From: Paeniglutamicibacter quisquiliarum
Lineage (GTDB): Bacteria > Actinomycetota > Actinomycetes > Actinomycetales > Micrococcaceae
Assembly (NCBI RefSeq): GCF_019084045.1
Contig: NZ_JAHRED010000007.1
Span: 186,001-250,000, forward strand
Direction: 5' to 3'
Length of the DNA stretch: 64,000 nucleotides
Below, one piece after another: positions 12,865-32,396 of this stretch. The notes under the pieces were generated by a model that saw only the letters and a program-made list of their open reading frames with translations, did no database searches and was not told where the DNA came from. The first letter of the stretch is position 1. Each line of letters begins with the position of its first letter. The translations under genes and the position numbers were made by a program.

Positions 12865-14274
12865 TCAGGCCTGCAGGACCCGGTCCTCGATCTCGTCTTG
12901 CACCCAGGCCTCCCCGTCCCGGAACACGTTGAGGGCCAGCGGCAACTGGTGGGAGGCGCTCTCCACGATGTGCATGAGATAGCCGGCGGTGTTGGGAAAA
13001 GCGATGACATCGTTCGGGGCTGCACCTTGCGGGAACTCGAACCGCCGGCGCAGGATCAGCTCCTCCTCGATGCAGTAGGCACCCACCAGGAAACCGCTGA
13101 ACGGTTCGCGCGCGCGCCGCGGCCGTGCCGCGTGGATGAGGATCGGGTCGAGCAGGAAATCCGCCGAGGTCGATCGGCACTGCGTCCTGTTCATGTGCAG
13201 CCCCAGCAACGGCACGCCGTCGCTGCGCTCCTTCCCGAACGCGACAGCTGCAAGCGTCATGCCGCACCCGTCCAGCAGGGAACGCCCGGGTTCGCAGCGC
13301 AACTGGAGGTTTCGGCCGGCCAGCAGCTCCGCGATGCTCCCGGCCCCGGCCGGTTCGACGGCAAGGACCGTATCCAGCCATTGCCCGCGGACCGGGCTCT
13401 GGTGGTAGGGATAGACGTCCTTGCTCGGCTTCTTCCCGACGGCCCCGAGGGAATCGGATTTCCAGGTGATTTGCCCCGAGCCGGCCGGTTGCCCGGCGAG
13501 CGCCTCCCAAAAGCCGGCCCATTGGGCGGCGCTGTCCACATAGGACATCGGGATGCCCCCGCCCATGTCGATGAAGCCGGGCGCATGTCCCAAATCCACC
13601 AAGGCGTCGACCAGCTCCACCGACTCCGCCAGAGCAAGTGCCCGATGTTCGGCGCTGTACCCGTTGAGGTGGAAGTGGATCCCGACGATCCGAAGCCGGG
13701 AGGGATCCGGCGGCCCGGCCAGGAATTCGAGCCATTCCGCTGCCCGCAGGCCAAAGCGTGTTGGCGGCACCAGGGCGTTCTCGGTGGCCAGGCGCAGGGC
13801 GACGCGGGCACGCACCCCGCAGGACTCGGCAACTTCCCGCAGGTCTTCGGCCTCGTCCCGGTTGTCCAGGCTCACCACCACGCCGTTTTCCAGGGCCAGC
13901 CTGAGCAGCGCCGGCGACTTGACGGCGGCCGTGACAATGATCAGTTCCGGGTCCACGCCGCGGCGCAGGCACTGGTCGAGTTCGTGGAAGCTGGCCACGT
14001 CGATCCCGCACCCCGCGTCCACCGCGGCGTCGATGGCGCCGATGGTCTTGTTGGCCTTGCGCGCCAGGTACACCTGGAAATCCACCGAGTGCCGGGCCGC
14101 GGCCGAACGCAGTTCCTCGACGTTGCGGCCCAGGGAGGAGAAATCGTGGAGATTGACCGGGGATCCGAACGTGTCGATCAATTCCCGGCACTGTGCCGCG
14201 TCAGCGACCACCCGCTCCATCCAGGGTTCAAGGCGCGCGGTCAGCGGTGCGGTGCCGTGCATCAGGGGTTTCAT
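12865..14274 (-). CDS. Y4yA-like PLP-dependent decarboxylase (fold type III)
   Basis: A 469-residue enzyme of the alanine-racemase / diaminopimelate-ornithine decarboxylase fold. The PLP lysine is K73 in YLARKANKT. It is followed by GIDVASFHEL, GIHFHLNGYS, the phosphate-binding DMGGGIPMSY and the EPGRSLLDGCG segment that contributes to the partner active site. The overall form matches the family named after y4yA of Rhizobium sp. NGR234 better than LysA or SpeC. It probably decarboxylates an amino acid made by the two genes upstream, with which it overlaps by four bases (ATGA). Substrate unknown. It is last in a three-gene operon. Confidence 0.8.
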   Translation of the reverse strand: MKPLMHGTAPLTARLEPWMERVVADAAQCRELIDTFGSPVNLHDFSSLGRNVEELRSAAARHSVDFQVYLARKANKTIGAIDAAVDAGCGIDVASFHELDQCLRRGVDPELIIVTAAVKSPALLRLALENGVVVSLDNRDEAEDLREVAESCGVRARVALRLATENALVPPTRFGLRAAEWLEFLAGPPDPSRLRIVGIHFHLNGYSAEHRALALAESVELVDALVDLGHAPGFIDMGGGIPMSYVDSAAQWAGFWEALAGQPAGSGQITWKSDSLGAVGKKPSKDVYPYHQSPVRGQWLDTVLAVEPAGAGSIAELLAGRNLQLRCEPGRSLLDGCGMTLAAVAFGKERSDGVPLLGLHMNRTQCRSTSADFLLDPILIHAARPRRAREPFSGFLVGAYCIEEELILRRRFEFPQGAAPNDVIAFPNTAGYLMHIVESASHQLPLALNVFRDGEAWVQDEIEDRVLQA

Positions 14275-15893
14275 GATCGTTCTCCAAGGTGTTGGGGCAG
14301 TCGTTGTCGCACGATGCGCCGGGCCCAGCTGCGGGGTTCGGGATGCAGCGTGCGGTTCAGGGTGTCATGGCCCAGCGTGGGGCCCTCGGTGGGACGGCCG
14401 AGCGCGGCCAGGGATTCGTTCCGGTTGCCGTTTGCGTCGATGCAGGTTCCGTCGGCATCGGTCAGCAGCCCGCGTTCCCCCTCGCGCACCAGCACCTCGC
14501 CGGCGGCGAGCAGGCCGGCGATGACAGGGGACATGGCCCGGCCGCCCGGCGCCGCGGAGTCCAGCACGCCGGCGGGCGGGGTGACGGCGTCAAGCAGCAC
14601 CGTGTCCCGCGGCGGCCGCGGCGGGAACGGGCCCTGATCCAGCAGGCCGCAGTCGAAGAGCGCCAGCAGCTTCAGCGCCGTCCCCTCGGGAGGACCGAAG
14701 GCCATGCGCTCCAACTGCCCGGACACGCGGTGGAACAGCTTGGCTTGCGCGGGCAGCCAGCGCACCCGCGAAACTGCCCGCACCACCTCGGGATACAGGC
14801 CCGACCACACCCGGGCCCACAGCCATTGGGCGGTGGGCGGCGCCTGCAGGTGGTTCGCTCTGATGCTGCGCCGGATGTTTTCCGCGGCGGATTCGGTGCC
14901 CTGCCCCTCTCCCGTGCGCCCGGTCAGGGCCGTGCGCCACAGATCCAGAGGCGTGACCGGCGAGCCGCACCGTTCCGCGCAGTCGAGGGCGCAGGACAGC
15001 AGGATCCTGAACAGGCCGGTGTATGCGGCGCCGGTGCCCGCCGGGAGGCAGGCGATTTCGCGGCCCCAGTCAAGGACCCGTTGTCGGTGCCCGTCGATGC
15101 ACCTGCGGATGTCTTCCGGCACCTCATCGGGCTTGGGAACCATGGGCAGGGTGCTCCGGGAGGCCAGGGTGATCCCGGACGGTTCCCGGCCACCGGGGAT
15201 GTAGCGCAGCCAGGGCGTCCCGGATTCGGGGCCCGCGGACTCGGTCCACCGTCCGCCGCGGCCCTCGGTCAGCAGCAGGACGGCATCGTAGGCGGTCAGG
15301 GCTGCGCCCCGGATGAGGACCCGGCTGCCTACCGGGATGCCTTCCTCGCCCAGTGCCGGGTACTCCCCGATCAGCGGGCCGCCGTTGCGGGCCGAGGCGA
15401 GCGGTTGCCCCGGCGCATCCAAGGCCATCCCATGTCCGGTCGCGAGCACCACCTCGTCGTACAACCCCGACCCGGCATCGCTAAAGACCTCCCATTGCGC
15501 CCCGGCACGCTCCACGCCCGTGACCAGGGCCGGGACGTGGGTCAGGCCGAAGGCCGCCGTCCCGGCGAGGTGCCGGAACTGCTCGGCCAGGTACCTGCCG
15601 ACCACGACCCGGGGCGGGTAGCGCTCCCCGCGGTACCGCGGCTCGACCCGTGCCACCCATTGCGCGAAGGTCTCCGGTCCCGCCGAAGGCCCCGCGTCGA
15701 GGATGCCCGCGGACACATTGAGTCGCAACGCCGTGGGCTGGCCCTCCTGCCAGACCCTCCCGGCACCGGGCGGACAGGGGTCGAAAACATCGATGGCCAG
15801 CCCTTCGGCCGCCGCGTCGGGACACCTGTCCCGGAGCTCGAGCAGGGCAAACAGGCACTTGGGCCCTCCCCCGATGAACGCCACGCGCGTCAT
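14271..15893 (-). CDS. FAD/NAD(P)-binding protein of the PF13454 type
   Basis: A 540-residue protein beginning with a dinucleotide-binding motif, VAFIGGGPKCLFALLEL. It has the companion motif YPPRVVVGRYLAEQF near residue 95 that marks the FAD-NAD(P)-binding family PF13454, and a second glycine segment near VLATGHGMA. Such proteins are flavoenzymes or amine oxidoreductase-like proteins of mostly unknown reaction. Both ends overlap the neighbours by four bases (ATGA twice), so the protein is made with the SbnA-like synthase and the Y4yA-like decarboxylase and probably acts between them, oxidising an amino acid intermediate (inference). The usual third residue of GxGxxG is altered by KC after GGGP. 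Confidence 0.75.
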   Translation of the reverse strand: MTRVAFIGGGPKCLFALLELRDRCPDAAAEGLAIDVFDPCPPGAGRVWQEGQPTALRLNVSAGILDAGPSAGPETFAQWVARVEPRYRGERYPPRVVVGRYLAEQFRHLAGTAAFGLTHVPALVTGVERAGAQWEVFSDAGSGLYDEVVLATGHGMALDAPGQPLASARNGGPLIGEYPALGEEGIPVGSRVLIRGAALTAYDAVLLLTEGRGGRWTESAGPESGTPWLRYIPGGREPSGITLASRSTLPMVPKPDEVPEDIRRCIDGHRQRVLDWGREIACLPAGTGAAYTGLFRILLSCALDCAERCGSPVTPLDLWRTALTGRTGEGQGTESAAENIRRSIRANHLQAPPTAQWLWARVWSGLYPEVVRAVSRVRWLPAQAKLFHRVSGQLERMAFGPPEGTALKLLALFDCGLLDQGPFPPRPPRDTVLLDAVTPPAGVLDSAAPGGRAMSPVIAGLLAAGEVLVREGERGLLTDADGTCIDANGNRNESLAALGRPTEGPTLGHDTLNRTLHPEPRSWARRIVRQRLPQHLGERS

Positions 15894-16882
15894 CGGGGGC
15901 TGGCGCCCAGCACCTCGGCAACGGTGTCCGGCTCCGGTTCGGAGCCAAGGTTGCTGCGGACCCAGTCGTCGTCATAGACCGTGTGCAGGTAGGGGACCCC
16001 CGAATCGTGGACCAGGAATCCGATGCGCGTGCCTTCCTCGATTCCCGGCAGGTCCCGCCCCATCGCCGCCACGATGGCGCCCGTCGAGGCCCCCGCCAGG
16101 ATCCCCTCGCGCCTGGCCAACATGCGGCAGCCCCTGACCATGTCGATTTCGTCGATCCGGCACACGACGTCGGGGTCGGCCTGCAGGGCCAGTTCCGGGA
16201 CGATGCCCGCACCCAACCCGGGGAAGCGCCGAACGCCCTCTTCCCCGCCGAACAACACCGATCCAACCGCATCCACCGCGACCAGCTTGGTCTCCGGGTG
16301 GTGTAGGCGCAGGTACCGTTGGCAGCCCAGGAGGGTGCCTGTGGTGCTGGTTGCCACGAACAGCATGTCCAGCCGCCCGTCCACCGCATCCATGAACTCG
16401 GGCATCGTCGTGGTGAAATGCGCATCCGGGTTGTCCGGCGATCCGTATTGGTTGGTGGTCACGGCCCCGGGATTCTCGCCCAGCAGCTCTTGGACCCTTT
16501 GGCGCCGGGCGGCCAGCTTGTTTCCATCGACGGGGGTCCGCACCAGCTCGATCCTCGCCCCGTACGCGCGCATGAGCTCAAGCGCCGAGCGGTTGGCGTT
16601 CTCGTCGACAACCGCCACGAACCCGATCCCGCGGACCCCGGATTGCCTGGCCAGCGCGATGCCGAGGTTCCCGGAGGTCGATTCCACGATCAGGCCCCCG
16701 GGCTCGAGCCTGCCGGAGGCCATGAGCGACCCAATGAGGCTGCTGGCGGTGCGTTCCTTGGTGCTTCCCGAGAGCTGGAGGAGGTCCAGCTTCGCGAAGA
16801 CCTCGATCTCCGGCCTGCCGAAGAGCCGTTCCAGCTTCACCGTCGGGGTGCTGAAGGGGTCGAGCGTTCCAACGTGGGTCAT
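15890..16882 (-). CDS. Cysteine synthase-like PLP enzyme (SbnA / Y4xP type)
   Basis: A 330-residue fold type II PLP enzyme. The PLP lysine is K42 in LSGSTKERTASSL and the substrate-carboxylate loop is ESTSGNLGIALA. The phosphate loop is in the ATSTTGTLLGC segment. It resembles the siderophore enzyme SbnA (O-phosphoserine plus glutamate to a diaminopropionate precursor) and NGR234 Y4xP more than CysK, since the CysK TSGNTG signature reads TSGNLG. The likely job is joining a serine derivative with an amine nucleophile. The start is the ATG at 16882, preceded by GAGGAACGAAC. It is the first gene of a three-gene operon and divergent from a peroxiredoxin. Confidence 0.8.
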   Translation of the reverse strand: MTHVGTLDPFSTPTVKLERLFGRPEIEVFAKLDLLQLSGSTKERTASSLIGSLMASGRLEPGGLIVESTSGNLGIALARQSGVRGIGFVAVVDENANRSALELMRAYGARIELVRTPVDGNKLAARRQRVQELLGENPGAVTTNQYGSPDNPDAHFTTTMPEFMDAVDGRLDMLFVATSTTGTLLGCQRYLRLHHPETKLVAVDAVGSVLFGGEEGVRRFPGLGAGIVPELALQADPDVVCRIDEIDMVRGCRMLARREGILAGASTGAIVAAMGRDLPGIEEGTRIGFLVHDSGVPYLHTVYDDDWVRSNLGSEPEPDTVAEVLGASPR

Positions 16883-17151
16883 GTTCGTTCCTCGCATCTG
16901 GTTGGACAGCGGCATCCGGCCCGGCGGCCCTGGAACGGTGGTGACCGGGCCGGAGCCATGAATGGCCCGCGCTTCGCCTCGGCGTGGGGAACGCCGACGT
17001 CACACGGGTTATCGGGTGGACAAACCCGCGGCAGCGGGTTGCAACTGTGGCCAGTCTAGGAGCGGGTGTTGGTTCTGACCAGACCAAAACCGAAAAACTC
17101 CTTTCCCCGGAGGCTTGCCGAAACACCTGTCCGACATGGGAAACTCAGGGC

Positions 17152-18501: not shown

Positions 18502-19665
18502 ATGACCGCACACGCGAACAAGACCGGTAAGAAGATCGGCCAGCCGAGTCAGCTCAACAAGGTGGTGGAAAAACCGACGTCAGACAAAAGCTCGGTTGAT
18601 AAAAACGCCGCCGCGGCAAAAATCGCAGCCGGCTCCAAGCAGGCAGCCACTGCTGTCCGGGGCACCCGGGCAGTTGCCGCGAAGTCCGCCACGGCGGAGC
18701 CAACCGCATCAAAGTCTGCATCTGCCACAGCCGCCACCATTCCGTCCGCACCGGCAGCTGCCGCGAAGCCGGTGAAGTCCGCGACTGCCACGGCAAAGGC
18801 CGCACCCGCAAAGACCGCGGGCCGCACCGCCCCGACCACCCAGGCGACCGCCGCAAAGCCAACCAAGACCGCGACCGAAAAGCCAGCCGCCGCGTCGTCC
18901 CGAACCACCCCCGCGGCCAAGACAGCAAGCGCCGCGAAGGCCACCGTGAGCAAATCCGCGACGGCAACAACCACCCCGGGCACCGCCGCCACGACGGCTG
19001 CGAAGACACCCGAGGCCACGACTTCCCGAACCACCGCGACCACAGCGACCTCGACTCCTGCCACCAGCGCGACCAAGCCTGCAACAGCCGCAAAGCCGGC
19101 CACGGCCACCCAGACCCCCGGCGAAAAGACGACCGACGCCGCGACCAAGACCGGCGGCACGGCAACGACCGCGACCGCGACAGCAAAGGCCGCCGCGGTG
19201 GACCCAAAGACCACCCCCGCTGCAGCCAAGTCCGCGGTCGCGGAAAAGACCACGGCTACCAAGCCCGTGGCCACGTCAACCGCTTCGGCACCGGCTCCGG
19301 CCGTGAAGACTGCCGACGCCGCGCCCAAGACCGCCGAAGCCCAGAAGCCCGTCCGGGCCAGGGACAAGCCCTTGGCAACTTCCGTCCCGTCCACCAAGGC
19401 ATCCGACCCGCTGCCGGCCGCCACGCTCGCCGGCAACGCCGCTGCGAAGCCCGCCACCACGGCAGGGTCCGCCGGCGCAACCGCCACCGCGACCGTCCCG
19501 GCAACGAAGACGACCCCGGCAGCCAAGGACGCGGCCACGGACAAGCCGGCATCCAGCGCCGCCGCACCGGCAGTTGCCCCGGCGGCCGACCCGATGCCGC
19601 GCGCCACCCCGTCCGGTCCCGAGGCACCCGAGGCAACAGTCGGCACCGACGCGGCCTTCGCCTCC
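18502..19665 (+). repeat. Low-complexity Ala/Lys/Thr/Pro-rich coding tract
   Basis: About 388 codons encoding an almost unbroken succession of short AAK, ATK, TAAKP and PAAK units inside the N-terminus of the ATP-grasp protein. Codons are mostly GCN, AAG and ACC, and the tract has no hydrophobic segment. It resembles the lysine/alanine tails of histone H1-like and AlgP-like bacterial proteins. Exact boundaries depend on where the folded domain begins, near the TMPQETVLHTV segment. Confidence 0.85.
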
Positions 19666-21159
19666 ACGATGCCCCAGGAAACCGTCCTGCACACCGTGCG
19701 GAACATCTCCGAGGTCCGCCACTTCTTCCGCACCAACGACGTGCCGGTCTTCTTCATCGGCGCCACCCCGTTCAACCTGCTGGGCCTGGACCGCTGGGTC
19801 CGGAACTTCACCTACATCAGCTACTATGACGCCTGGGACGGCGCCCACCCGCGGGTCTTCACCCCGGTGCACAAGCCCTACCGCGAGTTCGGCTCCGGCG
19901 AGGAAATCAACAACTGGCTGCTGCTCAACGCCGAGGTCCGCGCCCGGATGACCAAGGACCTGCGCCCCGGCGTGCGTCCGAAGGTCGCCATGGTCTTCTT
20001 CGACGAGGAAACCGAGCAGATCTGCGACGAGCTGGGCTACGACCTGATCCTGCCTTCGGCCGAGCTGCGCTCGCGCCTGGATTCCAAGATCGTCACCACG
20101 CAGCTGGGCAACGAGGCCGGGGTGCCTTCGGTGCCCAACGTCCTGACCAAGGGTTCGGACTGGTCCGCCCTGCGCGCGGCGGCCGACAAGGCCGGGCTCG
20201 GGGACGAACTGGTGGTCCAGACTCCCTACGGCGACTCGGGCAAGACGACGTTCTTCATCAACAACGAAGCCGACTGGGACAAGCACAGCGACGAGATCAT
20301 CGGCGAGGACATCAAGGTGATGCGCCGCATCAACAACCTGCCGGTGGCCGTCGAGGCAGTGCTCACGCGCTCCGGCACCCTGGTGGGCCCGTTCCTCACC
20401 GAGCTGGCCGGCCACGGCGACCTGACCCCGTACCAGGGCGGCTGGTGCGGCAATGAAATGCACCCTGACGTGCTCACCGACACGCAGCGCGCACGGGCCA
20501 CCGACCTGGTCAAGCGCATGGGCGACCGCCTGTCCACGGAGGGCTACCGCGGCTTCTTCGAGGTCGACGTGCTCGTAGACACCGACACCGACGAGGTCTA
20601 CCTCGGCGAGCTGAACCCGCGCATCTCGGGGGCATCGGCCATCACCAACGTGACGGCCGGCGCCTACGCCGACGTGCCGCTGTTCCTCTTCCACCTGCTC
20701 GAGTACATGGACGTGGAATTCGACCTGGACATCGACGAGATCAACGCGCGCTGGGAGGCACTCTCGGGCGCCGACGTGTGGAGCCAGATGATCATCAAGG
20801 AAACTTCCGAGACCGTCGAGCTACTCACCGCCACCCCGGCCACCGGCCAGTACGTCCTGGACGCCAACGGCGCCCTGGTCTTCAGCCGCCCGGCCATGGA
20901 CTGGCACATGCTGCAGAACGAGTCGGAGGCGTTCTTCCTGCGCATCTACGGACCGGGCGACTACCGCTGGAAGGGCGCGGACCTCGGCATTCTGGTCACC
21001 AAGGGCCGCCTGCAGCTGGAGCGCAGCGGGTCGACCAAGCTGACCATCCGGGCCAAGCACTTCATCGACTCCATCAGGGCCGGATTTGCCGGCCTGCCGG
21101 TGGGCGTGGAGGCAACCCTCGACGCCACCGCCGGGATCGGCGTGAAAACCCAGTGGTAG
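18502..21159 (+). CDS. ATP-grasp ligase with long disordered Ala/Lys-rich N-terminal extension
   Basis: An 885-residue protein in two parts. Residues 1 to about 388 are a disordered, basic Ala/Lys/Thr/Pro tract. Residues 389-885 are an ATP-grasp enzyme with a preceding Rossmann-like domain (VPVFFIGATPFNLLGLDRW), the ATP-clamping glycine loop VVQTPYGDSGKTTFF, and metal ligands in GFFEVDVLVD and YLGELNPRISGAS. ATP-grasp enzymes form an acyl-phosphate and join it to an amine, thiol or other nucleophile. Annotators often label this type biotin carboxylase, but no biotin domain or partner is present. Start: ATG 18502 with AAAGGAG eight bases before it. The NylB-like hydrolase and decarboxylase downstream suggest that an amide bond with a (poly)amine is made and broken. 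Substrate unknown. Confidence 0.85.
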   Translation: MTAHANKTGKKIGQPSQLNKVVEKPTSDKSSVDKNAAAAKIAAGSKQAATAVRGTRAVAAKSATAEPTASKSASATAATIPSAPAAAAKPVKSATATAKAAPAKTAGRTAPTTQATAAKPTKTATEKPAAASSRTTPAAKTASAAKATVSKSATATTTPGTAATTAAKTPEATTSRTTATTATSTPATSATKPATAAKPATATQTPGEKTTDAATKTGGTATTATATAKAAAVDPKTTPAAAKSAVAEKTTATKPVATSTASAPAPAVKTADAAPKTAEAQKPVRARDKPLATSVPSTKASDPLPAATLAGNAAAKPATTAGSAGATATATVPATKTTPAAKDAATDKPASSAAAPAVAPAADPMPRATPSGPEAPEATVGTDAAFASTMPQETVLHTVRNISEVRHFFRTNDVPVFFIGATPFNLLGLDRWVRNFTYISYYDAWDGAHPRVFTPVHKPYREFGSGEEINNWLLLNAEVRARMTKDLRPGVRPKVAMVFFDEETEQICDELGYDLILPSAELRSRLDSKIVTTQLGNEAGVPSVPNVLTKGSDWSALRAAADKAGLGDELVVQTPYGDSGKTTFFINNEADWDKHSDEIIGEDIKVMRRINNLPVAVEAVLTRSGTLVGPFLTELAGHGDLTPYQGGWCGNEMHPDVLTDTQRARATDLVKRMGDRLSTEGYRGFFEVDVLVDTDTDEVYLGELNPRISGASAITNVTAGAYADVPLFLFHLLEYMDVEFDLDIDEINARWEALSGADVWSQMIIKETSETVELLTATPATGQYVLDANGALVFSRPAMDWHMLQNESEAFFLRIYGPGDYRWKGADLGILVTKGRLQLERSGSTKLTIRAKHFIDSIRAGFAGLPVGVEATLDATAGIGVKTQW

Positions 21160-21173
21160 TCCCGCTCTAAACC

Positions 21174-21196
21174 GGTGCTGCAATCCATGCAGCACC
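21174..21196 (+). other. Perfect 9-base hairpin between ATP-grasp and hydrolase genes
   Basis: GGTGCTGCA, a five-base loop ATCCA, then TGCAGCACC. No run of T follows, so this is not a standard intrinsic terminator. It may trim or attenuate the transcript and set the ratio of the first and second genes. The stem is followed by another TGCAGCA at 21213-21219, so an alternative pairing is possible. Confidence 0.5.
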
Positions 21197-21284
21197 CGAA
21201 GGCTGCACCGTTGCAGCAACATCAACGCCGCCCCTGGGCGGCATCGAATTGCTGCGATGGTGCAGCCATGGAAGGAAACAGTCG

Positions 21285-22565
21285 TTGGACGGCACGAACC
21301 TTGATTACCACCCATCCGGGGTGGACATGCAGAATTGGCAACTGCCGCAAAACCTTCGCTGGTCCTTCCAGCACATGGCCGATTTCCTGCCCACCGCGGT
21401 GATATCGCGGGGGCGGGGACCGGCGGCCAAGCTGCCCGCCGCCCACCGCGACCTGGACTCGATCGCGCTGCCCCCGGCGGGCCCCGAGGAAGCGCCGATG
21501 ACCGTTGGCTCGGTCATGGGCTCGACCGACACCGACGGCTGGATGCTGCTGCACCGCGGGTCGGTGCTCACCGAGCAGTACTTCGGCGAGATGGCAGCGG
21601 ACACCGAGCACCTGCTGATGTCGGTGAGCAAGTCGTTGGTCGGCGCCGTCGCCGGGTCGCTGTGCGACGCCGGCCTGCTGGACCCCGAGGCGCAGCTGAC
21701 CGAATACGTGCCCACGCTTGCCGACTCCGGCTACGCAGGGGCCACGGTGCGCCAGCTGCTGGACATGCGCTCGGGCATCGCGTTCTCCGAGGACTACCTC
21801 GACCCGCGCGCCGAGGTGCGGATGCTGGAGGAGGCCATCGGCTGGGCTCCCCCGGCCTTCCCCGGCCCCACCGGCATGTACCCGTATTTGACCACGCTGC
21901 GGCAGAAGACCGAGCACGGCGGGCCCTTCGAATACCGTTCCTGCGAGACCGACATGCTGGGCTGGATCTGCGAGGCGGTCTCCGGTTCGACCATGCCCAC
22001 GCTGATGTCCCACCTGTTGTGGGGCAAGATCGGTGCCGAGTTCGACGCCGTGATCGGGGTCGACCAGTACGGCACCGGCATGTTCGACGGCGGGATCAAC
22101 GCCACGCTGCGCGACATGGCCCGCTTCGGTTCGCTCTTCCTGAACGACGGGCTCTCCCTGGGCGGTGCGCGCGTGCTCTCGCGCGAATGGATCGAACAGA
22201 CACTGTCCGGCGCACCCGATTCCCGCGAGGCCTTTGCCAACAGCCCGGGAGACAACCGCATGCCCGGCGGGATGTACCGGAACCAGATGTGGTTCCCCTA
22301 CGAGGGCAACGACGTGCTGCTGTGCCTTGGCATCCACGGGCAGATGGTCTACATCAACCGCCCCGCCCAGGTGGTGGGGGTCAAGCTCTCCAGCTGGCCG
22401 CTCCCGCAGGACGCCTCCAAGCTCTTCCCCACGCTGCGCGCCTTCGACGCGATTGCCGCCCAACTGGGCACCGCTCCCCCGGCCCCGCGCCAGGAGTTCC
22501 TGCCGCTGTTCACCCTGCCCCCGCGGACCAAATCGCATCCCGTGGTCGGAAACGCGAAGTCTTGA
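21285..22565 (+). CDS. NylB-like serine hydrolase (beta-lactamase fold), copy 1
   Basis: A 426-residue cytosolic hydrolase of the class C beta-lactamase / 6-aminohexanoate-dimer hydrolase fold. Catalytic residues: S113 and K116 in MSVSKS, Y217 in FEYRSCETD, and Y171 in SEDYLDP. These line up with NylB S112, K115, Y215 and Y170 as I remember that sequence. The NylB residues needed for nylon dimer cleavage, D181 and N266, correspond here to E182 and D268, so the natural substrate is a different amide. The start is taken as TTG 21285 because GAAGGAAA precedes it and copy 2 begins at the same residue with ATG. ATG 21327 is the alternative. It is second in the ATP-grasp operon. Confidence 0.85.
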   Translation: MDGTNLDYHPSGVDMQNWQLPQNLRWSFQHMADFLPTAVISRGRGPAAKLPAAHRDLDSIALPPAGPEEAPMTVGSVMGSTDTDGWMLLHRGSVLTEQYFGEMAADTEHLLMSVSKSLVGAVAGSLCDAGLLDPEAQLTEYVPTLADSGYAGATVRQLLDMRSGIAFSEDYLDPRAEVRMLEEAIGWAPPAFPGPTGMYPYLTTLRQKTEHGGPFEYRSCETDMLGWICEAVSGSTMPTLMSHLLWGKIGAEFDAVIGVDQYGTGMFDGGINATLRDMARFGSLFLNDGLSLGGARVLSREWIEQTLSGAPDSREAFANSPGDNRMPGGMYRNQMWFPYEGNDVLLCLGIHGQMVYINRPAQVVGVKLSSWPLPQDASKLFPTLRAFDAIAAQLGTAPPAPRQEFLPLFTLPPRTKSHPVVGNAKS

Positions 22566-22614
22566 GCTTGATTTGTGACGCCCGTGACGGGCACACCCTA
22601 GGATTGGAACAGAA

Positions 22615-25365
22615 GTGAAAGCGCCATCGTCGATCATCGACAACGAACAATATGCAACACCTTCCAGCGTATGGCGGCTGCGCACCGACGCCTGGGAGTA
22701 CCTTGGCTACGCGACCAAGCAACTGCCCTCCCTCTCCAATTCCGGCCCGGATTCCCATGCCGTGGAGAAGGGCCTGCTGGCCGAGGTCAAGCGACAGCTG
22801 CGCGTGCTTGAGGCCGTGGAAACCTACTGGGCGGTGCCGGGCAAGGCGCACGTGCTTGAGCTGCGGGCACGGATCGAGGAGGGCGACTACGCCACGGCGC
22901 TGACCCTGATCGAGATCGTGACCCGCGGGTTCACGCGTTTCAGGCACGAGCTCGACGAAACCCCGGAGGATCCGGCTCCCGACGCCCAGCCGGTTGACCA
23001 GCCGGTGCCGGCCGTCGCCGACCGCCGTCCGCGCTTCGAGGTGCTGGTCGTGGACGACGTCTCCGAGACGGTGCGCGAGGAACTCATTGCAGAGATGGCC
23101 GTCCAGCGCCGGGACTCGGACGCCTTCACGTACCAGATCAACGTGGTGCCCTCCCTCGAGGACGCCCTCATCGCGGTGCTGCTGAACCCCACCATCCAGG
23201 CCTGCATCCTGCGCCCGGGATTCGGCGTCTCGGCCCGGCACCGGCCGGGCGACGACCTGCGCAGGTTCCTTGACGGCTTCGTCGATCCCGGGGTGTCCGC
23301 CATCCCGCCCAAGCAACGCATCCTGAAACTGGCCGACATGCTCAAGAAGCTGCGCCCGGAACTGGACCTGTACCTGGTTGCCGACGTGTCCATCGAGGAC
23401 CTCGCCGGTTCCGCGAACCGCCGCTTCGCCAGGCTCTTCCGCCGCGAGGAGTCGATGGAGCTGCACCTGTCGCTGCTGCGCGGGGTCGCCGAGCGCTACG
23501 AAACCCCGTTCTTCGACGCCGTGCAGGAGCACAGCCGCAAGCCCGCCGCGGTCTTCCACGCGCTGCCCGTTTCCCGCGGCGGTTCGGTGGTCAACTCCCG
23601 GTGGATCAAGGACATGGGCGAGTTCTACGGCCTGAACCTGCTCCATGCCGAAACCTCCGCCACCTCCGGCGGACTTGACTCGCTGCTGGACCCGCGCAGC
23701 ACCATCCGCGACGCCCAGGTCCTCGCCGCCCGCGCGTTCGGTGCCCGGCGCTCCTACTTCGTCACCAACGGCACCTCCACCGCCAACAAGATCGTGCACC
23801 AGTCGATCCTGGCCCCGGGAGACGTGGTCATCGCCGACCGCAACTGCCACAAGTCCCACCACTACGCGCTGATGCTCGCCGGGGCGCAGGTCGCCTACGT
23901 GGACGCCTACCCGCTGAACGAATACGCGTTCTACGGGGCGGTGCCGTTGAAGACGCTGAAATCGATCCTGCTTGACTACCGCCGCGCCGGGCGCCTGCAC
24001 GAGGTCAAGATGCTCACGCTGACCAACTGCACCTTCGACGGCATCGTCTACGACGTCGAACGCGTGATGGAGGAGTGCCTGGCCATCAAGCCGGACCTGG
24101 TTTTCCTCTGGGACGAGGCATGGTTCGCCTTTGCCGGGTTCCACCCCATCTACCGCAGGCGCACCGCCATGGCCGCGGCGGCAACGCTTGAGGACAACTT
24201 CAGGGACCCCGCGTACGTTGCGCGGGCCAAGGCCCAGCGGGCACTGCTCTTCGACCCCGAGACCGGGGAGCCGGCGGAGGACTCCGTCTGGCTGGAAAAC
24301 CGGTTGCTGCCGGACCCGGAGACGGCCCGGCTGCGCGTGTACGCCACGCAGTCAACGCACAAGACGCTGACCGCGCTGCGCCAGGGCTCCATGATCCACG
24401 TCTTCGACCAGGACTTCAGCCACCTCAACGAGGTGACGTTCAAGGCCGCCTACATGACCCACACCTCGACCTCGCCGAACTACCAGATCCTCGCCTCGCT
24501 GGACATCGGCCGGCGCCAGGCGGAGCTGGAGGGCTACGAGCTGGTGCAACGGCAGGCCTACCTGGCCCAGTCGGTCGCGCAGATGGTGGCGCGCCACCCC
24601 CTGCTCAAGAAGTACTTCCGGGTGCTGACCACCGTCGACCTCATCCCGGAGGAATTCCGCGAGACCCGGCGTCCGATGCCCCTGCGCGACGGGATCGCGG
24701 CCATGGACGAGGCCTGGCGCACCGACGAATTCGTGATGGACCCGAGCCGGCTGACCCTTCACATCGGCAACACCGGGGTGGACGGGGACACGTTCAAGCA
24801 CAAGTACCTGATGGACATGTACGGGGTCCAGGTCAACAAGACCAGCCGGAACACCGTGCTGTTCATGACGAACATCGGCACCTCGCGCAGCGCGGTGGCC
24901 TACCTCATCGACGTGCTGGTCAAGCTCGCCGAGCACTTCGAGCGCGAGCGGGCGGACATGAGCCCGCGGGCGTTGGCCGCGCGCGAGAAGAGGGTCGCCG
25001 AACTGGTCGCCTCCCCGCCCCCGCTGCCGGACTTCAGCCGCTTTGCCGACAGGTACCGCAGCGCAGACGACACCGTGGACGGGGACATCCGCACGGCGTA
25101 CTTCACCACGTACCAGAACCAGGCCTGCGACTACCTGATGCCGCCGGAGCTGTTCGCGCGCGTGTGCGCCGGCGAGGAAGTGGTGTCCGCCGGGTTCGTC
25201 ACTCCCTACCCGCCGGGATTCCCGATCCTGGTGCCCGGCCAGGTCTTCACCAAGGAGATCCTCTCCTTCATGGCGGCGCTGGACACCCGCGAGATCCACG
25301 GCTTCGACCCGGAAGTGGGCTTCCGGGTCATCAACGAGGTCCCGGCCCTCGCCGCCGGGGCCTAG
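22615..25365 (+). CDS. Orn/Lys/Arg-type PLP decarboxylase
   Basis: A 916-residue fold type I decarboxylase. Residues 1-140 are a variable N-terminal region, about 140-290 a receiver-like wing domain (FEVLVVDDVSETVREEL), 330-720 the PLP domain and the rest the C-terminal domain. PLP contacts: D500 in LWDEAWFAF and Schiff-base lysine K583 in STHKTLTAL; SYFVTNGTSTANK binds the phosphate. The length exceeds E. coli LdcC/SpeC (about 710) because of the N-terminal region and a 30-residue insertion after the PLP aspartate. Starts at GTG 22615, 49 bases after the hydrolase stop; TAGGAT at 22599-22604 might be an internal -10. Probably supplies a diamine or agmatine-like amine to the ATP-grasp ligase (inference). 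Confidence 0.88.
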   Translation: MKAPSSIIDNEQYATPSSVWRLRTDAWEYLGYATKQLPSLSNSGPDSHAVEKGLLAEVKRQLRVLEAVETYWAVPGKAHVLELRARIEEGDYATALTLIEIVTRGFTRFRHELDETPEDPAPDAQPVDQPVPAVADRRPRFEVLVVDDVSETVREELIAEMAVQRRDSDAFTYQINVVPSLEDALIAVLLNPTIQACILRPGFGVSARHRPGDDLRRFLDGFVDPGVSAIPPKQRILKLADMLKKLRPELDLYLVADVSIEDLAGSANRRFARLFRREESMELHLSLLRGVAERYETPFFDAVQEHSRKPAAVFHALPVSRGGSVVNSRWIKDMGEFYGLNLLHAETSATSGGLDSLLDPRSTIRDAQVLAARAFGARRSYFVTNGTSTANKIVHQSILAPGDVVIADRNCHKSHHYALMLAGAQVAYVDAYPLNEYAFYGAVPLKTLKSILLDYRRAGRLHEVKMLTLTNCTFDGIVYDVERVMEECLAIKPDLVFLWDEAWFAFAGFHPIYRRRTAMAAAATLEDNFRDPAYVARAKAQRALLFDPETGEPAEDSVWLENRLLPDPETARLRVYATQSTHKTLTALRQGSMIHVFDQDFSHLNEVTFKAAYMTHTSTSPNYQILASLDIGRRQAELEGYELVQRQAYLAQSVAQMVARHPLLKKYFRVLTTVDLIPEEFRETRRPMPLRDGIAAMDEAWRTDEFVMDPSRLTLHIGNTGVDGDTFKHKYLMDMYGVQVNKTSRNTVLFMTNIGTSRSAVAYLIDVLVKLAEHFERERADMSPRALAAREKRVAELVASPPPLPDFSRFADRYRSADDTVDGDIRTAYFTTYQNQACDYLMPPELFARVCAGEEVVSAGFVTPYPPGFPILVPGQVFTKEILSFMAALDTREIHGFDPEVGFRVINEVPALAAGA

Positions 25366-29433: not shown

Positions 29434-29725
29434 TTCGTCCCCAATCGAAGTGTCTTCATCCCCAGATGAAACAGCTGACAACGTGCACCGCTTCAACCCC
29501 TTGTGCAACGTTGTTCCCATGGTAGGCACATGGCCTTGGCAGCGCCATGGAAACGACATTGCAATTGGGGCACGGAGTTCTCCCCGCCAGATGCGGGCCC
29601 GCACGTCTTCGGCGGCATCCCCGGCTCCTGCCCGTTCCGGCCGTCCCGTGCATCCGTTTGGCGTCGCACCATCGGCGCACGCCGCCGCTATGGATACTGC
29701 TGCGCCGCGGTGCTTCAATTGCTCC

Positions 29726-31108
29726 ATGACGCACCTTGTGCAGGCCGACTACCTCGTGGTCGGGGCCGGCGCCATGGGCATGGCGTTCGCCGATGCACTG
29801 ATCGACCACGCCGACGTGCGCGTCGCCCTTGTCGACCGGCGCCACGGCGCGGGCGGGCACTGGCTCGACGCCTATCCGTTCGCCCGGCTGCACCAGGCCT
29901 CCGCCTTCTATGGGGTGGCCTCGACGTTGCTGGGCGATCGCCGGGTGCAGCAGCACGGTCCTGAGGCCGGGCTCCACGAGCGGGCCGACGTCTCCGAGAT
30001 CTGCGCCTACTACGCACATGTCCTCGCCGACAGGATGCTGGGCTCCGGGAAGGTCGAGTTCTTCAACAACTGCGAGTACGTCGGGGACCGGCAGGTCGTT
30101 TCGCATGTCTCCGGCCGGCGGTTCGAGTTCCCGCCGCGATGCCGGCTCGTCGACGCCCGCTACCTCGCCCCCGATATCCCCTCGGTGACGCCGCCGCACT
30201 TCGGAATCGAGTCCGGCGTCCGCGTGGTTCCGGTCAACAGCCTCGCCCACATCATCGACGCGCCGAGCCAGTACGTGATCGTGGGATCGGGCAAGACGGC
30301 CACCGACGCCTGCATCTGGCTCCTGGCCCACGGCGTGGATCAGGCAGCGATCTGCTGGGTGCGGCCGCGCGATCCCTGGATGCTCAACCGGGCGGTCGTC
30401 CAGCCTGATCCGGCGGTGTTCCTGGGCATGGCCGCGGACACCATGGAGGCCGCCGCGGGCGCCACCTCGCTGGAGGACCTCTTCCTGCGGCTCGAGGACG
30501 CGGGCGTGATGATCCGCATCGACGGGTCGGTCTTCCCGACGATGGCCAAGACGCCGACCCTTGCGCACTGGGAGCTGGAGAAGCTGCGCACCATCGAGCA
30601 CGTGGTGCGGCTGGGACATATCCGGATGGTGGAACGGGGGCGCATCGCCCTCCAGGAGGGGTCGGTCCCGATCGAGCGGGACGCGCTCGTCGTCCACTGT
30701 GCGGCCTCCGGCCTGCGCTACCCGCCGACGATCCCGATCTGGGGACCACGGGAGATCACGTTGCAGCCGATCCGGGCCGGGTTCCCGTGCTTCGGGGCGG
30801 CCCTGGCCGGCTACGTGGAAGCGACCCGCGACGATGACGCGGAGAAGAACCGGCTCTGCCCGCCGACCCCGTATCCGAACTCGCTGGCGGGCTGGGCGAA
30901 CATGCAGGTGCTTGGCACCCGCGCGGTGGCATCTTTCGCTTCCGCGCCCGACATCAAGGCCTGGGCCGATACCGTGGCTCTGAACCCGGCCCGCGTCCCG
31001 CCCGGGGACGGCAGGTCCCCGGCGCTGCAGGACGCGCTCGGTCGGCTCAAGACCCGGGGCCCCTCGGGAATCGCGAGGTTGGCCGAGCTGGTGGGCGCGT
31101 CGATCTGA
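29726..31108 (+). CDS. FAD/NAD(P)-binding oxidoreductase
   Basis: A 460-residue flavoprotein-like enzyme. The N-terminal FAD motif is VVGAGAMGMAFADALI at residues 10-25 and a second dinucleotide motif, YVIVGSGKTATDACIWLL, sits near 185. The order is that of flavin monooxygenases, and an ATG-like motif is replaced by VVHCAASG. The substrate cannot be told. The start at ATG 29726 follows a GATACT that may be a -10 box; the longer frame adds 92 unconvincing residues. It stands between the HTH gene (divergent) and the second NylB-like gene (convergent). Confidence 0.8.
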   Translation: MTHLVQADYLVVGAGAMGMAFADALIDHADVRVALVDRRHGAGGHWLDAYPFARLHQASAFYGVASTLLGDRRVQQHGPEAGLHERADVSEICAYYAHVLADRMLGSGKVEFFNNCEYVGDRQVVSHVSGRRFEFPPRCRLVDARYLAPDIPSVTPPHFGIESGVRVVPVNSLAHIIDAPSQYVIVGSGKTATDACIWLLAHGVDQAAICWVRPRDPWMLNRAVVQPDPAVFLGMAADTMEAAAGATSLEDLFLRLEDAGVMIRIDGSVFPTMAKTPTLAHWELEKLRTIEHVVRLGHIRMVERGRIALQEGSVPIERDALVVHCAASGLRYPPTIPIWGPREITLQPIRAGFPCFGAALAGYVEATRDDDAEKNRLCPPTPYPNSLAGWANMQVLGTRAVASFASAPDIKAWADTVALNPARVPPGDGRSPALQDALGRLKTRGPSGIARLAELVGASI

Positions 31109-31154: not shown

Positions 31155-32396
31155 CTACGAAACCGGCTCGGGTTCCTGAAGCACCGGGGCGGACGCGGTC
31201 TCGACCTCCACCACCAGCGCGGCGGAAATCGCGTCGAAGGCGCGCAGGACGGGAAAGAGCCTGGCGGGATCCTGCGGCGTCGGCCAGGTGGACAGCTTGA
31301 CCGCCACCACCTCGGCGGTGCGGTTGATGTAGACCATCTGCCCGTGGATGCCCAGGCACAGCACCACGTCGTTGCCCTCGTAGGGGAACCACATCTGGTT
31401 CCGGTACATCCCGCCGGGCATCATGTTGTCCCCCGGGCTGTCGGCGAAGGCATCGCGGGAATCCGGGGCACCGGCCAGGGTCTGCTCGATCCACTCGCTG
31501 GAGAGCACCCGTTCACCGGTCAGGGAAAGACCGTCATTGAGGAACAGCGAACCGAAGCGGGCCATGTCGCGCAGCGTTGCGTTGATTCCGCCGTCGAAGA
31601 CCCCGGTGCCGAACTGGTCGACACCCATGGCGGCGTCCGATTCCGCTCCGATCTTGCCCCACACCAGGTCCGACAGCAGCACGTCCATGGTGGCGCCCGA
31701 AGCGACCTCGCAGATCCATCCCAGCATGTCGGTCTCGCAGGAACGGTACTCGAAGACGCCGCCGTGGGCGGTCTTGCGCTCCAGGGTCCGCAGGAACGGG
31801 TACATGCCGGTGGGTCCGGGAGCCTTGGAGGCGGCCCAGCCAATGGCCTCCTCCATTTTCCGCACCCCGGCGGCCGGGTCCAGGTAGTTCTCGGAGTAGT
31901 CAATGCCGGAGCGCATGTCCAAAAGCTGGCGCACCGTCGCGCCGGCGTATCCGGTTTCGGCCAGTTCCGGCAGGTAGTCGGTCAGCTGCCCCTCAGGGTC
32001 AAGCTTTCCTGCGTCGCACAGCGCGCCCGCCACCGCGCCCACCAATGACTTGCTCATCGACATCAACAGGTGCTGGGTCGGCGTCGCCATCTCGCCGAAG
32101 TACTGCTCGGTGAGCACCTGCCCGCGGTGCAGGAGCATCCACCCGTCGGTGTCAGTCGTGGCCATCACCGAGCCGACGCTCATGGGCAGCTCCCCGGCGT
32201 AGGCCGGGGGCAGCGTGACCGAATCCAGGTCGCGGTGTGCTGCCGGAAGCGGCGCCACCGGGCCACTCCCCCGGGAGATTTTCGCGGTGGGCAGGATGTC
32301 GGCCATGTGCTGGAAGGACCAACGCAGGTTCTCCGGGGACCTCCACGTGTTCATGTCCACCGCAGGGGTGGGGAGATCCGGGTTTGTGCCGTCCAT
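31155..32396 (-). CDS. NylB-like serine hydrolase (beta-lactamase fold), copy 2
   Basis: A 413-residue close paralogue of the hydrolase at 21285-22565, with most positions identical over the whole length. Catalytic S113-x-x-K116 is in MSMSKS, the tyrosine is in FEYRSCETD and a second tyrosine is in SENYLDP. The residues matching NylB D181 and N266 are again Glu and Asp. It ends earlier and with a different tail (ASAPVLQEPEPVS). The start ATG 32396 is unambiguous because copy 1 aligns from residue 1. It stands alone on the minus strand between the flavoprotein and the GlsB-like gene, not next to an ATP-grasp or decarboxylase gene. Confidence 0.88.
   Translation of the reverse strand: MDGTNPDLPTPAVDMNTWRSPENLRWSFQHMADILPTAKISRGSGPVAPLPAAHRDLDSVTLPPAYAGELPMSVGSVMATTDTDGWMLLHRGQVLTEQYFGEMATPTQHLLMSMSKSLVGAVAGALCDAGKLDPEGQLTDYLPELAETGYAGATVRQLLDMRSGIDYSENYLDPAAGVRKMEEAIGWAASKAPGPTGMYPFLRTLERKTAHGGVFEYRSCETDMLGWICEVASGATMDVLLSDLVWGKIGAESDAAMGVDQFGTGVFDGGINATLRDMARFGSLFLNDGLSLTGERVLSSEWIEQTLAGAPDSRDAFADSPGDNMMPGGMYRNQMWFPYEGNDVVLCLGIHGQMVYINRTAEVVAVKLSTWPTPQDPARLFPVLRAFDAISAALVVEVETASAPVLQEPEPVS

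What the first reader, a model, noticed from the sequence alone, without database searches (positions are those of the whole stretch)
18502..25365. Three-gene pathway: ATP-grasp ligase, NylB-like hydrolase, Orn/Lys/Arg-type decarboxylase
The three genes run in one direction with gaps of 125 and 49 bases. Each domain is clear: an ATP-grasp enzyme makes an amide-type bond, a serine hydrolase related to NylB cleaves amides, and the decarboxylase makes an amine such as cadaverine, putrescine or agmatine. A plausible reading is a metabolic or storage cycle in which an amino acid is decarboxylated, the amine is joined to an acid by the ATP-grasp enzyme, and the conjugate is later cut by the hydrolase. 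None of the three matches a characterised set known to me. The substrates and the cycle are inference.
Basis: partly seen in the sequence, partly recalled or inferred. Interest (0 to 1): 0.78.

Follow-up and report, generated by a model that had tools for sequence, protein, structure and literature searches.

The report
Amide make-and-break genes with decarboxylase
Three neighbouring bacterial genes, found together far more often than chance would give, look like a small pathway that makes an amine, joins it to an acid and later cuts the join, which may explain the natural job of nylon-digesting-type enzymes and of a decarboxylase of unknown activity.

Summary
The three genes are real: an ATP-grasp ligase (NCBIfam NF005096), a NylB-type serine hydrolase with its catalytic residues, and a decarboxylase of the Rv2531c family, which has solved structures but no clarified activity. 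The association is not random. In 120 family genomes (window's own included) the ligase and the hydrolase (E 1e-60) occur in exactly the same 20; the decarboxylase is in 18 of these and 3 of the other 100, and in 8 of the 18 it lies elsewhere in the genome. In Mycobacterium it is in 45 of 51 ligase-bearing genomes and 20 of 67 others. Of 80 named loci, 73 have a NylB homologue near the ligase; 19 have GABA transaminase, amine oxidase or a CaiB-type CoA-transferase; of 40 control stretches, none. Best reading: an amide make-and-break module on a diamine, working like the Puu gamma-glutamylputrescine pathway with unrelated enzymes. Every substrate is inferred. The window's own cluster has no catabolic neighbour, and its genome also carries a glutamine-synthetase-like gamma-glutamyl-type module, so replacement of Puu is not shown.

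The parts
18502..21159 (+). ATP-grasp ligase gene (885 aa), NCBIfam NF005096/PRK06524
   Evidence: Over the curated cut-off, 727.8 bits against 684; biotin carboxylase/PurK-like predicted fold, mean pLDDT 80; AAAGGAG before the ATG
18502..19671 (+). N-terminal low-complexity tail of the ligase, 390 aa: 122 A, 79 T, 40 K, 39 P, net charge +28
   Evidence: Counts; extensions of varying length and make-up in relatives, absent in others (with approximate starts)
19672..21156 (+). ATP-grasp domain, ELNPR motif at residue 703 of the protein
   Evidence: Alignment A1: the window and 28 of the 34 loci then in hand, mean column identity 63%; motif position
21201..21267 (+). Very stable hairpin in the 125-base gap, just before the ribosome-binding site of gene 2
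   Evidence: 21160-21284 folds at -69.4 kcal/mol, z -7.9; inverted repeat; gaps of six relatives range from z -6.1 to +0.3; one Rfam match, E 0.49 and far below its gathering score, elsewhere in the region
21285..22565 (+). NylB-type serine hydrolase (426 aa, TTG start)
   Evidence: PF00144, NylB structures; Ser113, Lys116, Tyr217 and pocket positions Glu182 and Asp268 conserved among homologues
22615..25365 (+). Orn/Lys/Arg-type PLP decarboxylase (916 aa), Rv2531c family; STHK motif at residues 580-583
   Evidence: PF01276, 9n0n/9n0o 765 bits over residues 22-909, motif position

Best explanation
A three-gene amide make-and-break module acting on a diamine. The decarboxylase (gene 3) makes the amine, most likely cadaverine from lysine, otherwise putrescine or agmatine. 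The ATP-grasp ligase (gene 1) uses ATP to join one amine end to the carboxyl group of a small acid, probably one that carries an amino group (glutamate or an omega-amino acid). The free end is then oxidised by amine oxidase or transaminase plus aldehyde dehydrogenase encoded elsewhere in this genome, and the NylB-type hydrolase (gene 2) cuts the amide, releasing an omega-amino acid (5-aminovalerate or GABA) and the acid for re-use. The product enters a GabT / semialdehyde dehydrogenase / glutaryl-CoA route. This is the protecting-group logic of the Puu pathway carried out by unrelated enzymes. Shown: gene identities, conserved catalytic residues, the association of the three genes, and catabolic neighbours in a minority of relatives. 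Inferred: every substrate, the order of steps and the direction of flux. My confidence is about 0.85 that ligase and hydrolase make and break the same kind of amide, 0.65 that the decarboxylase supplies the amine, and 0.4 for the full catabolic diamine reading, the figure given below.
For: (a) Ligase and hydrolase (E 1e-60) in exactly the same 20 of 120 family genomes. (b) Decarboxylase in 18 of those 20 against 3 of 100; adjacent or within about 5 kb in 10 and elsewhere in the genome in 8, so not just one inherited block. (c) Mycobacterium: decarboxylase in 45 of 51 ligase-positive and 20 of 67 ligase-negative genomes; 40 of 40 for ligases scoring 824 bits or more, 4 of 10 for those at 717-751. 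(d) Of 80 named loci: NylB homologue 73, GabT 12, primary-amine oxidase 7, CaiB-type CoA-transferase 7, glutaryl-CoA dehydrogenase 6, decarboxylase 6; in 40 control stretches 0, 0, 0, 0, 1, 0. On the ligase tree the GabT label needs 9 gains or losses. (e) L117 holds amine oxidase, two aldehyde dehydrogenases, two NylB homologues, ligase, GabT, CaiB-type transferase and a glutaryl-CoA dehydrogenase with 733 bits to 3swo. (f) In 11 loci (10 genomes) outside the class a C45/AAT amide hydrolase is near the ligase in 10 and a NylB homologue in none: another fold for the same kind of reaction. (g) The window's own genome has an unlinked row of GabT-like, glutaryl-CoA dehydrogenase-like (60% identity to that of L117), aldehyde dehydrogenase and 3-hydroxyacyl-CoA dehydrogenase genes. 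(h) The two NylB pocket positions 181 and 266 are Glu/Asp in 104 and Asp in 107 of 110 aligned rows, which would fit a cationic group on the acyl part (inference).
Against: No substrate is known for any of the three. No GabT, amine oxidase or glutarate gene was found within 10 kb of the window's ligase, and 61 of 80 named loci lack GabT, amine oxidase and CaiB-type transferase. These neighbour families were chosen after seeing them near the ligase, and the queries for amine oxidase, CoA-transferase, glutaryl-CoA dehydrogenase and the aldehyde and glutamate dehydrogenases came from loci among the 80, so those loci count themselves; GabT alone against controls gives only p 0.008. The window's genome also has a glutamine-synthetase-like gene near two PF07722 hydrolases, a candidate classical gamma-glutamyl-amine route. 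In its glutarate-like row the GabT-like gene is just under the TIGR00700 cut-off (492 against 507), the acyl-CoA dehydrogenase is under all named cut-offs shown and the aldehyde dehydrogenase is nearest to a ketoglutaric-semialdehyde model, also under its cut-off. The CoA-transferase tested with NCBIfam (L016) is under the cut-off of the succinate-glutarate model, and that of L117 is nearest in the PDB to formyl-CoA and succinate-HMG transferases. The own-genome amine oxidase is 40% identical to the query. Decarboxylase and ligase also occur apart: 2 of 20 and 3 of 100 in the family; 6 of 51 and 20 of 67 in Mycobacterium; outside the class 10 ligase genomes without it and 3 decarboxylase genomes without the ligase. 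Species counts share ancestry.
Confidence: 0.4

Rival explanations
1. Conjugate store or stress metabolite: the decarboxylase makes a diamine, the ligase turns it into an amide that is kept as a store or protectant, and the hydrolase releases it on demand, as glutathionylspermidine synthetase/amidase does with its own conjugate (recalled).
For: Same pair logic; in the window and in 61 of 80 named loci none of GabT, amine oxidase or CaiB-type transferase is close. The downstream neighbours look to me like universal-stress, TerC-type and ferritin-type proteins (my reading of the translations, not searched).
Against: GabT, amine oxidase or CoA-transferase beside the ligase in 19 of 80 loci and 0 of 40 controls (families picked after the fact).
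Confidence: 0.25
2. The ligase and hydrolase form a module for an omega-amino-acid dipeptide or amide (for example a GABA- or 5-aminovalerate-amide), and the decarboxylase is a functionally separate acid-resistance or polyamine gene.
For: The ligase-hydrolase pair is tighter than the link to the decarboxylase; GabT is near the ligase in 12 of 80 loci against 6 of 80 for the decarboxylase.
Against: Decarboxylase 18 of 20 against 3 of 100, in 8 of the 18 unlinked; 40 of 40 in one Mycobacterium ligase group.
Confidence: 0.2
3. Biosynthesis of a small amide natural product, with the hydrolase as a trimming, deprotecting or resistance enzyme.
For: ATP-grasp enzymes make amides in natural-product pathways (recalled: BtrJ of butirosin).
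Against: Among the neighbour proteins that I ran (40 entries, some repeated) none was named as NRPS or PKS; many others were not run.
Confidence: 0.08

Closest known systems
Puu gamma-glutamylputrescine pathway (E. coli; GlnA2/GlnA3 in Streptomyces coelicolor)
   Same: Protect a diamine as an amide at ATP cost, oxidise the free end, cut the amide, then GabT and semialdehyde dehydrogenase.
   Different: Known ligase is glutamine-synthetase-like and known hydrolase is of the PF07722 kind; here ATP-grasp and NylB-type (or C45) enzymes. Streptomyces system: abstract and one section of PMC8998196 read; the E. coli enzyme details are recalled.
Glutathionylspermidine synthetase/amidase (Gss)
   Same: A ligase and an amidase that make and break one polyamine amide (recalled).
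   Different: Gss is one fused protein with a CHAP-type amidase (recalled); here separate genes, and no Pfam match at all in gene 1 at E 0.01.
NylB, 6-aminohexanoate-dimer hydrolase
   Same: Fold family; equivalents of Ser112, Lys115, Tyr170 and Tyr215 by my reading of the alignment, conserved.
   Different: A homologue lies near the ligase in 73 of 80 named loci; the position of residue 266 is Asp and that of 181 mostly Glu; no nylon substrate implied.
Rv2531c amino acid decarboxylase (PDB 9n0n, 9n0o, 9n0p)
   Same: Match over residues 22-909 of 916, 765 bits.
   Different: Its activity has not been clarified (review PMC12910592, passages); here it lies next to the ligase-hydrolase pair.

Membership tests
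NCBIfam NF005096 / PRK06524 ('biotin carboxylase') | Score over the curated cut-off of 684 bits | tested here: met
   727.8 bits, residues 391-873
ATP-grasp superfamily | ATP-grasp fold with Mg/ATP motif | tested here: met
   Foldseek best hits biotin carboxylase and PurK, best E 4e-15, TM about 0.5, 12% identity; E[L/V]NPR present in all rows of A1 (role of the motif recalled). Pfam: no family at E 0.01
NylB-type serine hydrolase | PF00144 with Ser-Lys-Tyr catalytic set | tested here: met
   Ser in 109, Lys in 109, Tyr in 110 of 110 aligned rows, the exception being one fragment with gaps (some rows are duplicates)
NylB-type serine hydrolase | Hydrolysis of 6-aminohexanoate dimer | not testable with these tools
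   No assay
Rv2531c decarboxylase family | Match over most of the length and PLP-lysine motif | tested here: met
   765 bits over residues 22-909; STHK at 580-583 (that this Lys binds PLP is recalled)
Puu pathway | Glutamine-synthetase-like ligase in the cluster | tested here: not met
   Ligase is ATP-grasp
Puu pathway | PF07722 gamma-glutamyl-GABA hydrolase in the cluster | tested here: not met
   The cluster's hydrolase is PF00144; none of the five PF07722 places found in the genome is on the window's contig, two full-length ones lie near a glutamine-synthetase-like gene
Puu pathway | Diamine ligation, oxidation, release of GABA or 5-aminovalerate | not testable with these tools
   Inferred from neighbours only
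Glutathionylspermidine synthetase/amidase | Gss synthetase domain and fused CHAP amidase | tested here: not met
   No Pfam family in gene 1 at E 0.01; hydrolase is a separate PF00144 gene

The most novel reading that the evidence does not exclude
Actinobacteria carry a second, independently invented protecting-group pathway for cadaverine or putrescine, in which an ATP-grasp ligase replaces the glutamine-synthetase-like PuuA and a NylB-type (or C45) hydrolase replaces PuuD, fed by the Rv2531c-type decarboxylase. This would be a native role for NylB-type enzymes and a pathway for an uncharacterised mycobacterial decarboxylase family.
Probability: 0.35. Interest if true: 0.78.

Novelty: new variant of a known kind. 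Interest (0 to 1): 0.6.

Why it matters
It gives three poorly understood protein families a shared, testable job: the 'biotin carboxylase' family NF005096, which here keeps company with amide hydrolases; NylB-type hydrolases, best known from man-made nylon; and the Rv2531c decarboxylase, whose solved structures did not reveal an activity. If right, a widespread but patchy actinobacterial amine pathway has been missed because its ligase and hydrolase do not resemble the known ones.

Tried and rejected
Carboxylase reading of gene 1: the family name and best folds are biotin carboxylase/PurK, but no biotin carrier or carboxyltransferase was among the neighbour proteins that I ran, while amide hydrolases were; not disproved. 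RNA element between genes 1 and 2: a strong hairpin, but no Rfam match in the gap (the one match in the region is elsewhere and far below its gathering score) and the structure varies in relatives; left as a side observation. Decarboxylase substrate from sequence: best named models LdcC 187, AdiA 162, ornithine 142 bits, all far below cut-offs; undecided.

Literature for novelty (open-licence library only): Rv2531c, 7 papers, one read in passages; ATP-grasp with 6-aminohexanoate-dimer hydrolase, 0; five-term search, 0; glutamylcadaverine, 2, one read in part; two of ATP-grasp/putrescine/NylB, 18 of which 15 listed, none on this by title and abstract start; 6-aminohexanoate-dimer hydrolase with Asp181, 2, one read in a passage; NylB with natural substrate, 2, one read in passages; gamma-glutamylputrescine with ATP-grasp, 1, on fungal FluG, listing only; 6-aminohexanoate with cadaverine, aminovalerate and Mycobacterium, 0; three of 6-aminohexanoate/polyamine/actinobacteria/amine oxidase, 28 of which 10 listed, none of the 10 holding 6-aminohexanoate. 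Papers outside that library were not searched.
Full report
What is there. The window lies in a Micrococcaceae genome whose nearest named ligase is from Paeniglutamicibacter sulfureus (94% identity). The three genes lie at 18502-21159, 21285-22565 and 22615-25365, same strand, gaps of 125 and 49 bases. A terminator scan finds no plus-strand terminator-like site in the two gaps, so one transcript is likely but not shown.

Gene 1 belongs to NCBIfam NF005096 (over its cut-off), named 'biotin carboxylase' but with no Pfam match at E 0.01. Its predicted fold is ATP-grasp of the biotin carboxylase/PurK sort at 12% identity, TM about 0.5. It bears a 390-residue tail rich in A, T, K and P, net charge +28. 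Gene 2 is NylB-like. In 110 aligned rows (some of them duplicates of one locus) the catalytic Ser and Lys are present in 109 and the Tyr in 110, the exception being one fragment with gaps; the position of NylB Asp181 is Glu in 97 and Asp in 7, and that of residue 266 is Asp in 107 (positions by my reading of the alignment). A review figure legend lists Asp181 among the NylB reaction-site residues (PMC11052090, passage); that it contacts the substrate's amino group is recalled. Gene 3 matches Rv2531c, 765 bits over residues 22-909 of 916. A 2026 review says that the structural study did not clarify its activity (PMC12910592, passages); the structure paper itself was not held.

Association. In 120 family genomes, the window's own included, the ligase is found in 20 (19 over the cut-off, plus G022 whose ligase matches are in pieces; weaker matches, presumably to other ATP-grasp enzymes, occur in nearly every genome and are not counted) and the hydrolase at E 1e-60 in exactly the same 20. 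The decarboxylase is in 21: 18 of the 20 (not G052, G105) and 3 of the other 100 (G038, G069 partial, G097). It is adjacent or within about 5 kb in 10 of 20, in three layouts (same strand; convergent; about 5 kb from the ligase on the other strand), and elsewhere in the genome in 8. Fisher values are 3e-23 and 2e-16, uncorrected for ancestry. Within genus g6, G005 and G061 have all three and the sampled G036, G083 and G103 have neither ligase nor decarboxylase by these criteria, although in G005 the decarboxylase is on another contig.

In the phylum sample of 396 genomes the ligase is in 15: 5 in the window's class, all 5 with the decarboxylase, and 10 outside it, none with it; four further genomes have the decarboxylase alone, G479 in the class and three outside. 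In a Mycobacterium sample of 118 the ligase is in 51 and the decarboxylase in 65, 45 of 51 against 20 of 67 (Fisher 9e-11). Split by ligase score, 40 of 40 genomes with 824 bits or more and 4 of 10 with 717-751 bits have the decarboxylase; one genome with ligase fragments has it too.

Neighbours. At 40% identity over half the query, a NylB homologue is in 73 of 80. Of the 7 without, three are on contigs that end near the ligase (L079, L096, L134); two (L066, L070) come from strains whose second ligase locus (L119, L117) has NylB homologues; L124 is from a bin whose other locus (L101) has one and itself has an amidase; L120 showed no NylB or other listed partner. GabT is in 12, an aldehyde dehydrogenase 7, primary-amine oxidase 7, CaiB-type CoA-transferase 7, glutaryl-CoA dehydrogenase 6, decarboxylase 6, C45/AAT hydrolase 6 and large glutamate dehydrogenase 5. 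In 40 stretches of 20 kb taken at two fixed places in 20 ligase-bearing genomes (5 of the window's family, 15 Mycobacterium) these were 0 except one glutaryl-CoA dehydrogenase. Any of GabT, amine oxidase or CoA-transferase: 19 of 80 against 0 of 40, p 3e-4; GabT alone p 0.008. Two cautions: the families were chosen because I had seen them there, and some queries come from loci among the 80 (L064, L066, L067, L096, L117, L128), which therefore count themselves. In 24 Mycobacterium loci taken from the sampled genomes (a few are the same records as named loci) the NylB homologue is in 22, amine oxidase in 3, GabT in 2. On the ligase tree the GabT label needs 9 gains or losses, 8 forced, shuffled mean 11.5: scattered over the tree rather than inherited once and kept.

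GabT is over its equivalog cut-off in L051 and the amine oxidase over its subfamily cut-off in L067, and the L117 acyl-CoA dehydrogenase matches a solved glutaryl-CoA dehydrogenase, 3swo, at 733 bits. The CoA-transferase is less clear: the L016 member is under the cut-off of the succinate-glutarate model, the L117 member is nearest in the PDB to formyl-CoA and succinate-HMG transferases. L117 alone carries amine oxidase, two aldehyde dehydrogenases, NylB homologues, ligase, GabT, CoA-transferase and glutaryl-CoA dehydrogenase.

Outside the class the partner changes: in 11 loci from 10 genomes a C45/AAT hydrolase is present in 10 and a NylB homologue in none; an M20 peptidase is in 5 and an amidase in 2 (queries from L050 and L051 in this set). 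Unrelated amide-cleaving folds beside one ligase are, to me, the strongest sign that the ligase makes an amide that must be cut.

The window's own genome has, unlinked, a GabT-like gene (just under the TIGR00700 cut-off), an acyl-CoA dehydrogenase 60% identical to the glutaryl-CoA dehydrogenase of L117, an aldehyde dehydrogenase (nearest a ketoglutaric-semialdehyde model, under its cut-off) and a 3-hydroxyacyl-CoA dehydrogenase in a row, beside a PucR-type regulator and a permease; it could receive 5-aminovalerate or glutarate. Another GabT over the cut-off lies elsewhere, and there is a primary-amine oxidase over its subfamily cut-off (849 bits), 40% identical to that of L067. Against a simple replacement story it holds a glutamine-synthetase-like gene (under the named cut-offs) near two PF07722 hydrolases, with a P450 and a permease.

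Mechanism. The best-supported reading is a make-and-break amide module on an amine supplied by the decarboxylase, used in diamine catabolism in at least some hosts. It works like the Puu pathway but fails its membership tests for ligase and hydrolase family. Storage or stress conjugates remain a live rival, above all for the window's own lineage, where no catabolic gene of those tested is adjacent. The acid partner is unknown; the acidic pocket of the hydrolase hints at an amino-bearing acyl group.

Novelty. I found no paper in the open library that links these families; papers outside it were not searched. I rate it a new variant of a known kind, interest 0.6. Mending the report against the calls changed wording and added cautions, not odds.

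Noticed in passing
window 31155-32396 (-): Second NylB-type gene, about 77-78% identical to gene 2, convergent with a flavoprotein-like gene at 29450-31108; in three of the sampled genus genomes (G022, G074, G111) a second copy lies elsewhere in the genome.
   Followed up: partly
window 21160-21284 (+): Exceptionally stable hairpin pair (z -7.9) between ligase and hydrolase, ending just before the ribosome-binding site; the gap of P. sulfureus also folds strongly (z -6.1), five other relatives less so.
   Followed up: partly
window 18502-19671 (+): 390-residue A/T/K/P-rich, positively charged tail on the ligase; A/K-rich extensions also in Mycobacterium L117 and L119 and in Leucobacter loci, none in some others. 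Function unknown.
   Followed up: partly
L029:6708-8951: In G022 a second, incomplete copy of the ligase-hydrolase pair lies upstream of the other copy; the main ligase copy also matches in two pieces.
   Followed up: no
window 12865-16915 (-): Trio of a PALP enzyme, a NAD_binding_9 protein and an Orn/Arg/DAP-decarboxylase-type enzyme, looking like a small amino-acid or siderophore-type pathway.
   Followed up: partly
L211:1853-10087: Permease, P450, redox protein, glutamine-synthetase-like gene, solute-binding protein and two PF07722 hydrolases in the window's genome: a candidate gamma-glutamyl-amine pathway.
   Followed up: partly
L016, L017, L020, L021, L080, L081: DUF5058-type protein, a 241-aa protein without Pfam match (both tested in L020) and an M20 peptidase recur near the module in Glutamicibacter-type loci.
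   Followed up: partly
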